A stretch of DNA of 64,000 nucleotides from positions 54,745,357 through 54,809,356 of the forward strand of contig OZ025250.1 in assembly GCA_964019135.1 (NCBI GenBank), written 5' to 3'. This DNA comes from Arenicola marina (lineage: Eukaryota > Annelida > Polychaeta > Arenicolidae). A program made the translations under genes and the position numbers. Below, piece after piece: positions 19,001-23,155 of this stretch. The notes under the pieces are model-generated. The model ran no database searches and had not been told where the DNA came from. It saw only the letters and a list, made by a program, of their open reading frames with translations. Each line of letters begins with the position of its first letter. Within the stretch, counting starts at the first letter, position 1.

Positions 19001-21958
19001 ACAACGGTAGGATCTAATATATAATGAATATTATTACCGACTTTTTATGAAGTCTTCGATCTAGTTAGACAAATTCACTATCCAGTATCTTTATTATGGT
19101 ATATGTGGGCATAGCGGACTGTCCATTACGGATTGATTCACGGGGAGTGATTTAGGCCTACGGAATATATCCATTCGGGACGTAGTCAGTTTTTGGCATG
19201 GATTTTTCACGATCCAATGGTCAATTGGATCAATGGTCGACGTTACGAAATATAGGATGGTAGCCGACGTTTTCAATTTATATACTGAATTATGAATTAG
19301 ACCAAGATTAGGCCAATTGTTGTGGTGATCATGGACTTGATAATGGCCCTTTTATCATAATTGTGTAAAGCCTCCTGAACATATAGCACCACAACTGCGA
19401 AGCGCCTGTTGCCTGGCATTGCAAGGACTTTTTGCAGTGGGATATACTGATTATGCACTGTGATACTTATTGTACATACAATGATATCAAGGTACGTCTA
19501 GATCGCACCGTGGTATACCATGGTACTTAACGCATATTATGAAATACCATGGTACTCAACCTACGGACATCGGTATAACATGGTACATATAACTACAGTA
19601 CCATGGTATAAAGCGAAGATCCAGTGATGTAGCATTGCGTACCATGGTATACCACAGCAAAATATGGTACGTGCCATAGTATACCATGGCTAAATTTCAT
19701 ATGGGCAGTATCTGTATTTCCGGTTAGCTGTTGTAAAACGCCGAAATCGTGCATAGCTTCCGCTGGATAGTATCGATATAAGTTGGTTTATAAACACAGC
19801 CTAACAAAAATCCACCCCTTTTTGGCCATGATGCGCCAGTCTAGGCCAATATCTGTTTCAAGTACAGCATAATATCTGGTTTGCGATAATGTCTACTGGA
19901 CGGATGTCGTAGTCACATCAATCGTTACAATTGCATGTTTCTTAATTGTTGTAACTTTTTTATATCTGAAATGTCATTTCAAGGGTGCATTTTAAAAACG
20001 TGGGGTGGTCCATAGAAACTTGAGGGGGGGGGGGGGGTTCCAAACCTCAGATGGCCCTAATGTTGTATTAAAAAACAAAATGTCTCCTCAAAAGCGGGGA
20101 GGGTTCCGGACGCCCCATGGATCCGCTCCTGTTTACGGTTGATTTGTATTATAAAATCTTTAACATCACGTAATTAATATACATTTAGGCATAAATAGCA
20201 TATATAATCGCTATTATTTTGTCAGGTATTTTTCCGGTTCGCTGGTGTGCACCGGAAGTGATACAGTACAAACGCTACAGCACCCAGTCCGATATCTGGG
20301 CGTACGCCATCGTCCTGGTGGAGGTCACAACACATGGACAACTGCCGTACAAAGGTTAGTCCCCATTTTGACATTACACACATTCCTGGTCGCCGTCGAC
20401 CAAGTCTTACTGTGTGCAGACTGACGTGAGACCTTGTAGTTCATGTTGTCTTGTTGTTACCGGGGGCCGGCCGGTAGTCCAGTGGGCTAGAGAGTTCGTC
20501 CTGGGTGCTCTTGCTACCTGAGAGCCTCACGGCATGTCGGTCCATGCTTCGAACCCCGCTATGGCCATGTATGTGTGGTCGCAGGACAAAGATCACATAT
20601 CCTTCTTCGCAAAGAGTAGGGGGTTATCCCTGTTGATATGGCTTCACTCTCCCTTCCTTCTCGCATTGAAGCGACATGACCAAAAGTGGTTAAAGCATCC
20701 TGAATATACAACCTTATTGTTACCTGGTTGTGGTTGCGTATTCACTACATGTTGCTTCACAATATTATGACAAATTAACAAGCCTGTTATGTATTATGCA
20801 CATCATATGTGTACCTTTGCACTCGTAACCTGTAGTCAAAACCTGTAGATAAAATAGGATGTAATTTCAGGCATATTTTGCCCAAATCAATAATTAATCG
20901 TCCCAAAAGTTTATCTTGGCCTAAATTAGCCCTCGTGCGCACAAAAAAGTGCCTAAAACTACAGTGCTTTCATATTTGTTTTTGAAATCATGATCATAAT
21001 GTCGTTTTTCCTCGCTAGCCTACATCGGCGTTGCTGCATGATGCCGCTTTACGGAGTGCCACCATGCGATGGAAAATGAAGCAGGTGTAATAGGGTTGTT
21101 CTCGCGGGTTCTATTTCCGGTTTAGGTCTTTTGGGGACCAACAAAAATACACGTGCTCTTAGAACGAGTGCGCATCACACTGGTGCCTTGCTACAGCTGT
21201 GTGACGAGCAATCATTGTAGTCAACGTTTGAGTGTTGGGAACCGACTGGCTGCGCTGTTTGTGCGTGAAGAATCGAGTGGGTGTGCCACTATTTTTGTTT
21301 CGCTTTGGTCCAGGCATTGCTTACTATCAAATCATAATATAGTTAAAGATAAGACATTTATCTCTCCATAATGCATGTGGTCCGTTCGATGAGAGTGGTG
21401 GAAGCGTTCTATTGTGAGGCAAATCATCGATGGTTACATTTCTGCGACCATCGCAACACATTAGATCGCCTGACAATTACAGTCACTCATGAGACAACCG
21501 CATTCTGGTTTATCAACTGCCTAACCGCTTTTACATAAATCTACTCGGATGGTTATAATTCTGATATGCACTGCACTTCAGTGGTTAGTTGTGCATCCAA
21601 GGTCAGCTTAAGCCGATCTTGTGTGTGAAACGAGTGAAGGCAAACAACCGGAAGGTTGGTGGCACGTACAGGCCGTTGATGCTAGGCATTGATGTAGAGC
21701 ATTTAAGTATCCCTGTCTCGTAGGGTCTCGATAAGATCCCATAGTGACTTACAGCCCTATGACCCCGGATTCTTGTCTCCAGGTTTAACCAACTTCGAAG
21801 TGATCAAGATGACGATATCTGGCACGCTACACATGAAGCCAGCAGAATGTCCCGACGACCTGTATTCCATAATGGTGACATGTTGGGCTACGGAACCGGA
21901 GAACAGGCCTAGCTTCCGTCAATTGACGGCGAGAATGGCGTCGCTGCAGCACCGGTAA
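9985..21958 (+). CDS. Kinase A1: Src-type SH3-SH2-pseudokinase-like gene (first of unit A), 5' end unresolved
   Basis: Assembled from splice-flanked exons: 9985-10040 (start uncertain), 10373-10459, 10756-10858, 11499-11603, 16475-16630, 16982-17149, 17898-18154, 18681-18831, 20226-20354, 21783-21958. Order is linker, SH3 in two exons, C-terminal half of SH2, SH2-kinase linker with P-loop, then kinase. P-loop is AKGNFASVW (one of three Gly kept). VAIK Lys, HRD Asp, catalytic Asn and APE are present. Helix-C Glu is replaced by Ser (LKSALGVMK), DFG is DCG and the gatekeeper is Met (FIVMELL). An activation-loop Tyr aligns with Src Tyr416. No N-terminal half of SH2 and no start codon were found. 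It ends LQHR-TAA without a C-terminal regulatory Tyr, as SRMS does. The TAA overlaps a splice donor, so it may instead read into A2. Likely a scaffold or weak kinase in phosphotyrosine signalling (inference). Confidence 0.8.
10373..10459 (+). CDS. A1 exon 2, acidic unique region
   Basis: Between TTTTCTCCAG and GTGAGA, phase 1 to 1. Encodes an acidic stretch ([18 protein letters not shown]) with one Tyr in an EYED context. Confidence 0.65.
10756..10858 (+). CDS. A1 exon 3, SH3 N-terminal half
   Basis: Between TTGCAG and GTAAGT, phase 1 to 2. [20 protein letters not shown] matches the ALYDY to DLSF.KGD part of SH3; the ALYDY tyrosines are Phe here. Confidence 0.85.
11062..11317 (-). mobile_element. 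tRNA-derived SINE (copy 2), in A1 intron between the SH3 exons
   Basis: Reverse orientation; the tRNA-like head lies at the right end (CTCTAACCCACTGAGCTATC). The orthologous copy sits in the same intron of B1 (48929-49181), so the insertion predates the unit duplication. Confidence 0.85.
11499..11603 (+). CDS. A1 exon 4, SH3 C-terminal half
   Basis: Between TCTTCACAG and GTAAGT, phase 2 to 2. Encodes EPWSRAQ and [11 protein letters not shown]; the ligand-binding Trp is kept, while the NYV Tyr is His. Confidence 0.85.
11822..11890 (+). pseudogene. Candidate decayed SH2 N-terminal exon of A1
   Basis: After AACCCCAG in the phase needed by exon 4, the frame reads D-YFHETI, then TGA, then DSLV. 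This resembles the W-Y-H start and FLVR core of an SH2 exon, with in-frame stops at both places. The homologous piece in B1 (49668-49735) reads DSLVR. Could be chance. Confidence 0.25.
11961..15295. mobile_element. 3.3 kb insertion in an A1 intron, bounded by TACTGACAGAAGT inverted ends
   Basis: Absent from the matching B1 intron. The left end is TACTGACAGAAGT and the right end ACTTCTGTCAGTA; TA at both borders could be the target duplication. The right end is itself a 31 bp palindrome (15265-15295). A related end occurs at 34500-34550. Inside are a roughly 696 bp direct duplication (about 12850-13545 and 13546-14240), many TGACGTCA palindromes, and a CCTTGACCTTTGACCTAC motif near the right end. 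No transposase frame is seen, so it is a non-autonomous or composite DNA element. Confidence 0.55.
12850..14240 (+). repeat. Direct duplication of ~696 bp, rich in TGACGTCA
   Basis: The block starting ACGTCAATTTTGACGCACAC (12853) recurs as ACGTCATTTTTGACGCACAC (13549). Shared later landmarks are GACGTCATCACGTCATGGTG and GGACTGTTAGTCCTTCAGAT. The copies differ by scattered changes, so the duplication is not recent. Confidence 0.75.
15312..15416 (+). other. Highly conserved 105 bp block, possible exon (A1 copy)
   Basis: Flanked by AAACAG and GTTTTC, open in a phase 1 to 1 frame and nearly identical to 49838-49942, more so than the DNA around it. It contains GIIRAI, weakly like an SH2 FLVR core. 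Its entry phase does not fit SH3 exon 4 directly. Not a recognised domain. Confidence 0.3.
16475..16630 (+). CDS. A1 exon, SH2 C-terminal half
   Basis: Between a T-tract ending TTTTTTAG and GTGTGT, phase 1 to 1. Matches SH2 strands [21 protein letters not shown] then F.HIPELIL. The usual HYKI His is Asp here. Confidence 0.8.
16982..17149 (+). CDS. A1 exon, SH2-kinase linker and P-loop
   Basis: Between CTTTTCAG and GTGTGG, phase 1 to 1. Encodes [14 protein letters not shown] (as the Src linker LC..L...CP) and [12 protein letters not shown], a P-loop with only the middle glycine. Confidence 0.85.
   Translation, partial: WTIPNNYVNHCGSHARRFTQLYQTCPAATGRHCTYPETTYRRERNWRRETLPLFG
17898..18154 (+). 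CDS. A1 exon, kinase N-lobe
   Basis: Between CTGGCAG and GTGAGC, phase 1 to 0. TKVAIKQV holds the ATP Lys; [19 protein letters not shown] lacks the helix-C Glu; [13 protein letters not shown] has a Met gatekeeper. Confidence 0.9.
18681..18831 (+). CDS. A1 exon, catalytic loop and DCG
   Basis: Between GTCTTCAG and GTCAGT, phase 0 to 1. [12 protein letters not shown] and [22 protein letters not shown] Asp and Asn kept, DFG changed to DCG, activation Tyr present. Confidence 0.9.
19100..19905. mobile_element. A1-specific intron insertion with TACCATGGTA palindromes
   Basis: The matching B1 intron is about 0.7 kb and lacks this DNA. Roughly eight GGTATACCATGGTAC-like palindromes cluster at 19497-19690. 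Borders are approximate and no terminal repeats or coding frame were defined. Confidence 0.4.
20226..20354 (+). CDS. A1 exon, APE and helix F
   Basis: Between TTTGTCAG and GTTAGT, phase 1 to 1. [20 protein letters not shown] then [20 protein letters not shown]. Confidence 0.9.
20463..20713 (+). mobile_element. tRNA-derived SINE (copy 3), in A1 intron
   Basis: GGCCGGCCGGTAGTCCAGTG head, then the shared body to TGAATATACAACC. Orthologous copy in B1 at 54458-54710. Confidence 0.85.
21097..21217 (+). repeat. Dispersed repeat, inverted copy of 2229-2352
   Basis: Part of a ~0.7 kb insertion (about 21090-21765) in this A1 intron that B1 lacks. Confidence 0.6.
21783..21958 (+). CDS. A1 last kinase exon, with a stop that overlaps a splice donor
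   Basis: Acceptor TCTCCAG, phase 1. Encodes TNFEVIKM to [19 protein letters not shown], completing the kinase C-lobe. Unspliced, it stops at TAA 21956-21958. A donor CG/GTAACT after 21954 leaves phase 2, matching the acceptor before 23091, so the exon may instead end at 21954 and join the A2 exons. Confidence 0.85.
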
Positions 21959-22184
21959 CTGGCGAGAGAAAGGACCTCTGATAGGGGCCAAAACGTCACA
22001 CGTTCTGAGCCATCTAGAAGCAAATGTACAGCTTCACAATGTGCCTCGATCGTCGTGTCTATTGACGGGGCTATGAAAATATGAGGTAGTAACTCTTCAG
22101 TTTCAGATATATGTAAATGATTTCATAAACGATAGCATATGGGGTATCACCGCCCTCCCCCCCCTCCTCCTCCCCCATCCAGCC

Positions 22185-23090: not shown

Positions 23091-23155
23091 CGAGGATATG
23101 AACACGCAGCAGTCTGCCACGGCAAGCTTCTGTATCTACGACAAACCAGACCCAG
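23091..23155 (+). CDS. A2 exon 1, pre-SH3 linker
   Basis: Acceptor TTTTTTTTGAAACAG, donor GTACGT, phase 2 to 1. The frame is open from the acceptor through GAGGAT to ATG (23098), then [16 protein letters not shown]. Confidence 0.75.

What the first reader, a model, noticed from the sequence alone, without database searches (positions are those of the whole stretch)
21783..23155. Possible fusion of two Src-type kinases into one double-headed protein (unit A)
Seen: the stop of A1 (TAA 21956) sits inside a donor-like CG/GTAACT, leaving phase 2. The next recognised exon (23091) has a strong pyrimidine-rich acceptor, starts in phase 2, and is open through the joint to the A2 SH3. A2 has no Met-Gly first exon of its own. 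Inference: alternative or constitutive splicing would give SH3-SH2-pseudokinase-SH3-SH2-kinase, an architecture I do not know from the Src family. It recalls the pseudokinase-kinase order of JAKs.
Basis: partly seen in the sequence, partly recalled or inferred. Interest (0 to 1): 0.88.

Follow-up and report, generated by a model that had tools for sequence, protein, structure and literature searches.

The report
Possible double-headed Src-type kinase gene
Two neighbouring Src-like kinase genes in an unidentified organism, one with a damaged and one with an intact enzyme core, are laid out so that normal splicing could fuse them into one two-headed protein, but no RNA was available to show that it happens.

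Summary
The sequence facts mostly hold. Type-1 unit A1 (SH3-SH2-degenerate kinase) ends at 21954 in CCG|GTAACT. The next recognisable exon, 23091-23155, enters in phase 2 and leads into the SH3-SH2-active kinase A2. The same arrangement recurs in the paralogous unit B (55328 CAG|GTAACT to 56113), in phase and open. The 'stop' is weak evidence of a gene end: any phase-2 intron beginning GTAA or GTAG shows an in-frame stop, and 6 of 8 undisputed phase-2 exon ends here do so. The joint donor ranks 19/38 (A) and 31/38 (B) among other donors. It is the only donor of 5 bits or more conserved in both units from A1's last intron to A2. Neither gap contains AATAAA or ATTAAA. Two corrections: the acceptor is weak by matrix score, and both joint exons carry an in-frame ATG after only 7 nt. 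Two separate genes therefore remain a serious rival; human BRK and SRMS lie 1.5 kbp apart. I favour an SH3-SH2-pseudokinase-SH3-SH2-kinase product at about 0.52. Eight literature searches listed no such Src protein, but no animal protein database or RNA was available.

The parts
9989..10040 (+). A1 exon 1 remnant (N-terminal region); its Met-Gly part was not found in unit A
10373..10459 (+). A1 exon 2, N-terminal region
10756..10858 (+). A1 SH3 exon a
11499..11603 (+). A1 SH3 exon b
15842..15936 (+). A1 SH2 exon a
16475..16630 (+). A1 SH2 exon b
16982..17149 (+). A1 linker and degenerate glycine loop (AKGNFA)
17898..18154 (+). A1 kinase exon: VAIK lysine kept, helix-C Glu replaced by Ala
18681..18831 (+). 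A1 kinase exon: [11 protein letters not shown] instead of DFG
20226..20354 (+). A1 kinase exon: APE
21783..21954 (+). A1 last recognised kinase exon, ending in phase 2 at CCG|GTAACT
21955..23090 (+). gap or candidate intron, 1136 bp; no A[AT]TAAA; 22190-22428 has an inverted copy at 9081-9325
23091..23155 (+). joint exon: linker if spliced from A1, or A2 start exon with ATG 23098
23298..23391 (+). A2 SH3 exon a
23979..24074 (+). A2 SH3 exon b
24422..24519 (+). A2 SH2 exon a
25020..25169 (+). A2 SH2 exon b
25815..25976 (+). A2 linker and glycine loop (first loop Gly is Ala)
27082..27344 (+). A2 kinase exon: VAIK and helix-C Glu
27788..27941 (+). A2 kinase exon: [11 protein letters not shown]
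29399..29527 (+). A2 kinase exon: APE
30755..30951 (+). A2 last exon with tail Tyr (SDPDYD) and TAG stop
44934..45174 (+). B1 first coding exon, [11 protein letters not shown]
48216..48329 (+). B1 exon 2
48608..48710 (+). B1 SH3 exon a; expected acceptor reads CGG, a TAG|GTGTGG 18 nt inside is in frame (by eye)
49337..49441 (+). B1 SH3 exon b
50282..50376 (+). B1 SH2 exon a
50981..51136 (+). B1 SH2 exon b
51574..51741 (+). B1 linker and degenerate glycine loop
52485..52741 (+). B1 kinase exon
53361..53511 (+). B1 kinase exon: [11 protein letters not shown]
54210..54338 (+). B1 kinase exon: APE
55157..55328 (+). B1 last recognised exon, ending in phase 2 at CAG|GTAACT
56113..56177 (+). joint exon of unit B (ATG 56120)
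56318..63502 (+). B2 exons 2-9 (56318-56411, 57052-57147, 57623-57720, 58212-58361, 58838-58999, 61089-61351, 61749-61902, 63374-63502); last exon outside the window

Best explanation
A1 and A2 (and likewise B1 and B2) are most likely one transcription unit in which an ordinary phase-2 intron (21955-23090; 55329-56112) joins the last type-1 kinase exon to the 65-nt joint exon, always or as one of two isoforms. The product would be N-terminal region - SH3 - SH2 - degenerate kinase - short linker - SH3 - SH2 - active kinase - tail Tyr. Inferred mechanism: the first module, which in unit B carries a Met-Gly-basic start suited to membrane anchoring, acts as a tethering and docking pseudokinase for the second, catalytically complete module. 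The apparent A1 stop would be the GTAA of the donor; when the intron is retained it would yield a short A1-only form. Shown: the domains, phases, splice-like signals, open joint and its repetition in two units. Inferred: transcription across the gap, use of the splice, and all function.
For: (1) Donor within the range of the real ones, 19/38 (A) and 31/38 (B), and kept in both units. (2) Reading on from undisputed phase-2 exon ends meets an in-frame TAA or TAG at once in 6 of 8 cases, that is 3 of 4 homologous pairs (A1/B1 introns 3 and 4, A2/B2 intron 3; not A2/B2 intron 2), as at the joint. (3) It is the only donor of 5 bits or more conserved in both units in 20355-23091 against 54339-56113. 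(4) No AATAAA or ATTAAA in either gap; of 11 hexamer variants scanned, A has one CATAAA (22124) and one AATAGA (22952), B none; A2 has AATAAA at 31846, 895 nt past its stop. (5) The 65-nt joint exon converts phase 2 to phase 1; skipping it gives a stop in both units. (6) The B1 Met-Gly exon joined to the A2 or B2 joint exon gives TGA, so a directly shared first exon fails. (7) The gaps, 1136 and 784 bp, are in the range of the 37 introns: 29 are 1136 bp or less and 26 are 785 bp or less.
Against: In-frame ATG after 7 nt of the joint exon in both units; only 3 of 37 internal exons have an in-frame ATG within about 4 codons. The joint acceptor is weak, 8/36 and 1/36, and four conserved AG sites in the gap (22545, 22823, 22924, 23045) have a better lower score. 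Each gap has one unconserved donor above 6 bits, 22383 (7.6) in A and 55621 (6.62) in B, and 21601 (7.47) in A1's last intron could give A2 a coding first exon in A only. The joint exon is 77.8% identical between units, no better than the gap (80.5%) or introns (74.9% mean); its changes by codon position are 2/6/6 and the excess of synonymous change is not significant (Fisher P 0.10). At the junction the units read R-E-D and S-P-D. Lack of a polyadenylation hexamer is mild evidence: 18 of 37 introns also lack one. The C-to-A change at the A1 end is silent if that is a real stop (CGG/AGG, Arg). No RNA or orthologue was available.
Confidence: 0.52

Rival explanations
1. Two separate tandem genes. 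A1 ends at TAA 21956; A2 starts at ATG 23098, with a non-coding 5' exon spliced to 23091 or a transcription start close to the exon.
For: In-frame ATG after 7 nt of the exon, G at -3, in both units. A 5'UTR exon spliced to the ATG exon is, from recall, the usual Src-family layout. Human SRMS and BRK are separate genes 1.5 kbp apart and SRMS lacks the myristoylation site (PMC7352994, passages). A weak TATA-like stretch lies about 30 nt upstream of 23091 (by eye).
Against: No donor of 5 bits or more conserved in both units for such a 5'UTR exon between 20355 and 23091, though 8 of 38 real donors score below 5 and unconserved donors exist (22383, 55621). No A[AT]TAAA after either A1 or B1. The donor at the stop would be a coincidence of about 4%, and its phase a further 1 in 3.
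Confidence: 0.34
2. Polycistronic transcript resolved by spliced-leader trans-splicing: the 23091 and 56113 acceptors receive a leader, with the ATG 7 nt downstream.
For: An acceptor immediately before an ATG and a short intercistronic gap are what trans-spliced downstream genes look like (general knowledge).
Against: No leader RNA in the window (Rfam at gathering thresholds, 0 hits); the organism is unknown, so use of trans-splicing is unknown; does not explain the donor at the A1 end.
Confidence: 0.06
3. Relic: the type-1 copies are decaying, the joint is an accident, and no joined product is made.
For: Unit A lacks the 5' part of the Met-Gly exon; the B1 SH3a acceptor is CGG; type-1 SH3-SH2 dN/dS 1.46 and whole type 1 0.69.
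Against: The modelled type-1 exons are open in both units; type-1 kinase dN/dS 0.51; a substitute AG lies in frame 18 nt inside the B1 SH3a exon (by eye).
Confidence: 0.08

Closest known systems
Src family kinases (SRC, HCK)
   Same: SH3-SH2-tyrosine kinase order; top PDB matches (A2: HCK, E 5e-116; A1: SRC-type chains 6f3f and 1fmk, E 1.7e-89; best 60 of 2889 and of 2737 matches shown); B1 starts MGN with basic residues; the A2 match ends at the tail Tyr
   Different: [16 protein letters not shown] instead of HRDLRAAN; A1 lacks the helix-C Glu, two loop glycines, DFG and the tail; two modules possibly in one protein
BRK family (PTK6/BRK, FRK, SRMS)
   Same: A2 without Met-Gly start; adjacent kinase genes as in BRK/SRMS (1.5 kbp, PMC7352994 passages); HRDLAARN motif (recalled)
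   Different: BRK and SRMS are separate genes; exon structure of that family was not compared here
Janus kinases
   Same: pseudokinase before kinase in one chain, if the fusion is real
   Different: no FERM domain found by Pfam (E up to 0.001); each kinase has its own SH3-SH2; kinase sequences are Src-module type

Membership tests
Src-module tyrosine kinases (SH3-SH2-kinase) | SH3, SH2 and tyrosine kinase in that order | tested here: met
   Pfam PF00018, PF00017, PF07714 above cut-off in 3 of 3 models scanned: B1, A2, A1; B2 was not scanned
Src family proper | Met-Gly N-terminus for myristoylation | tested here: inconclusive
   B1 yes ([11 protein letters not shown]); A1 not found; A2/B2 start MNTQQ/MNMQQ if ATG 23098/56120 is used
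Src family proper | HRDLRAAN catalytic loop, as in the SRC and HCK chains | tested here: not met
   A1 HRDLAAKN, A2 HRDLAARN against HRDLRAAN
Src family proper | C-terminal regulatory Tyr | tested here: inconclusive
   A2 residues 24-465 match 1fmk 5-446 of 452, so the match ends at A2 Tyr 465; that this is the SRC tail Tyr is recalled, the alignment of this stretch was not printed. A1 has no tail
Src family proper | exon size pattern | tested here: inconclusive
   103/105/95/156/168/257/151/129 resembles my recalled SRC pattern with one intron fewer; no reference gene was compared
BRK family | intron/exon structure distinct from the Src family | not tested
   stated in PMC7352994 (passage); no reference gene structure on hand
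Pseudokinase (A1, B1) | loss of catalytic residues | tested here: inconclusive
   A1: helix-C Glu to Ala, loop GQGCFG to AKGNFA, DFG to DCG; VAIK Lys, HRD Asp, Asn and DCG Asp kept; no activity assay
JAK family | FERM-SH2-pseudokinase-kinase | tested here: not met
   no FERM in the Pfam scan; SH3-SH2 precedes each kinase
Double Src-module protein | both modules on one mRNA | not testable with these tools
   no RNA reads or animal protein collection available

The most novel reading that the evidence does not exclude
A single protein, membrane-anchored at least in unit B, with two complete Src modules in tandem, SH3-SH2-pseudokinase-SH3-SH2-kinase, made by turning the stop region of one tandem duplicate into a splice donor, and kept in two paralogous genes: a JAK-like pseudokinase-kinase arrangement that arose independently from Src parts.
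Probability: 0.48. Interest if true: 0.8.

Novelty: new variant of a known kind. Interest (0 to 1): 0.6.

Why it matters
If real, it would be an independent origin of the pseudokinase-plus-kinase design of JAKs, built from two Src modules. It would also show how a tandem gene pair becomes one gene, through a donor that doubles as the upstream stop. It gives a clean test of whether a Src module can regulate a second one in cis. If it is not spliced, the locus is an ordinary tandem pair like BRK/SRMS.

Tried and rejected
Shared Met-Gly first exon feeding both kinases: B1 exon 1 joined to the joint exon gives TGA with B2 and with A2. Direct splice from A1 to the A2 SH3 exon: stop in both units. 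A separate Met-Gly exon for A2: two ATGGG sites in A (22139, 22411), none in B, and neither shows a phase-2 donor of 4 bits or more; one other ATG in A (21549, donors 21583 and 21601) and one in B (55967, donor 55974) do, and none of these is conserved. Haplotype duplication in the assembly: about 91-93% exon and 75% aligned intron identity is, in my judgement, too diverged for alleles. Relatives in viral contigs: three pattern matches, none confirmed. ARAGORN and Rfam scans: nothing. Pfam on 10 other ORFs gave nothing above a curated cut-off (three weak hits below it), so the organism stays unidentified.
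Full report
What is there. The window (no genome held) holds two homologous units on the plus strand: A (about 10-31 kb) and B (about 45-64 kb, cut by the window end). Self-comparison aligns them in pieces offset by about 33 to 38 kb. Each unit has a type-1 kinase followed by a type-2 kinase. Exon models were built by hand from splice sites and frame. Pfam finds SH3, SH2 and tyrosine kinase domains above curated cut-offs in the three models scanned, A1, A2 and B1. The top PDB matches are HCK for A2 and SRC-type chains for A1 (best 60 shown). 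A1 and A2 are only 38% identical (168 of 440 aligned positions), so they are not recent copies of each other, whereas A and B are: 92.7% (type 1) and 90.9% (type 2) coding identity.

Type 1 is degenerate and type 2 largely intact. In alignment with SRC A1 keeps the VAIK lysine, the HRD aspartate and the loop asparagine. It has Ala for the helix-C Glu, AKGNFA for GQGCFG and DCG for DFG. A2 keeps lysine, helix-C Glu, HRD and DFG; its first loop glycine is also Ala. The A2 match to SRC ends at its tail Tyr (table; the role of that Tyr is recalled). Between units, dN/dS is 0.36 for type 2, 0.69 for type 1 as a whole, 0.51 for the type-1 kinase and 1.46 for the type-1 SH3-SH2. 'Pseudokinase' for A1 is thus a fair but untested label.

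The joint. A1's last exon ends CCG|GTAACTGG at 21954 and B1's ends CAG|GTAACTGG at 55328. The next exons, 23091-23155 and 56113-56177, are both 65 nt, enter in phase 2, leave in phase 1 and run open into the SH3. A matrix from the 38 other donors scores the joints 6.54 and 9.44 bits, ranks 19/38 and 31/38. A simulated stop codon carries a donor this good in 4.4% of draws. As background, nine conserved donors of 5 bits or more occur in 9023 aligned intron bases (15 intron pairs; type-1 introns 1 and 2 were not entered and intron 4 was skipped as over 3 kb). The joint site is the only conserved one in the 20355-23091 alignment. Unconserved donors above 6 bits exist at 22383 (A) and 55621 (B).

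Why the stop is weak evidence for a gene end. That is so at A1 and B1 introns 3 (CAG TAA) and 4 (GAG TAA) and at A2 and B2 intron 3 (GAG TAG). It is not so at A2 and B2 intron 2 (GCG TAT). That makes 6 of 8 undisputed phase-2 ends, or 3 of 4 homologous pairs. A1's end looks the same.

What else bears on it. Neither gap (1136 and 784 bp) holds AATAAA or ATTAAA; of nine further variants scanned, A has CATAAA at 22124 and AATAGA at 22952, and B has none. Introns carry 1.13 A[AT]TAAA per kb and 18 of 37 lack them, so this is mild evidence. The gaps fit the intron lengths (median 619 bp), yet human BRK and SRMS are separate genes 1.5 kbp apart (PMC7352994, passages), so spacing decides little. Of 11 type-1 exon ends, those of exons 3, 4 and 11 enter A2 in its own frame in both units; exon 8 is open but in another frame; the other seven meet a stop. 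The Met-Gly exon therefore cannot be shared directly.

Against the fusion. Both joint exons carry an in-frame ATG after 7 nt (23098; 56120). Only 3 of 37 internal exons have an in-frame ATG within about four codons. A 5'UTR exon spliced just before the ATG is, as I recall, the usual Src-gene plan. The acceptor is weak by matrix (8/36 and 1/36), and four conserved AG sites in the gap do better on the lower of the two unit scores. The joint exon is no better conserved than introns, with changes 2/6/6 by codon position and Fisher P 0.10 for synonymous excess. The first residues after the joint differ in character (RED, SPD).

Weighing. The donor, its phase, the missing conserved rival donor and the missing polyadenylation signal favour one gene; the ATG, the weak acceptor, the presumed rarity of such fusions and the fact that this spot was picked from a whole window pull back. 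My estimate, a judgement and not a computed posterior, is 0.52 for a joined product as a major or alternative form.

Literature. Eight full-text searches listed no paper that I could recognise as describing a double Src-module protein. I saw listings with the starts of abstracts; two searches listed only 20 of 51 and 20 of 115 papers. I read passages of PMC8662651, PMC4177888, PMC8211107, PMC7352994 and PMC3927609. The last says that many mispredictions lead to truncated and fused proteins and shows a supposed fusion that was a gene-prediction error, a caution that applies here. The main amphioxus tyrosine kinase survey (doi 10.1093/molbev/msn132) is not held. Absence from print is therefore not established.

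Noticed in passing
48596-48630: The B1 SH3a exon has lost its acceptor AG (ttccgg|ATC; in unit A ttgcag|ATC); a TAG|GTGTGG 18 nt inside would give an in-frame exon start (by eye).
   Followed up: partly
48258-48588: 106-bp tandem repeat, 3.1 copies, multiplies part of B1 exon 2 and its donor; the third copy has an in-frame stop.
   Followed up: no
26229-26558 and 59285-60578: 42-bp minisatellite inside type-2 intron 6, about 8 copies in A and about 30 in B; most units carry GTAAGTAC, a donor-like decoy array (by eye).
   Followed up: no
25676-25858 and 58667-58881: 94-bp repeat (1.9 and 2.3 copies) duplicates the acceptor and 5' end of the type-2 exon 6.
   Followed up: no
9984-10040 against 45115-45174: Unit A matches only the 3' end of the B1 Met-Gly exon; the A1 start was not found. 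One Met-Gly-basic ORF at 5734 (MGLDKRSQRRR) runs into a repeat element and was not tested.
   Followed up: partly
5794-6053, 11059-11317, 20463-20713, 24560-24816, 37164-37394, 48925-49184, 54457-54709, 57761-57997: Dispersed element of about 255 bp on both strands, perhaps a tRNA-derived SINE judging by one end; no Rfam match at gathering thresholds.
   Followed up: no
21772-21978 against 55146-55352: The type-1 last exon shows 0 synonymous and 8 non-synonymous changes over 56 codons, and the first 24 nt after the exon are identical, after which the units soon stop aligning.
   Followed up: partly
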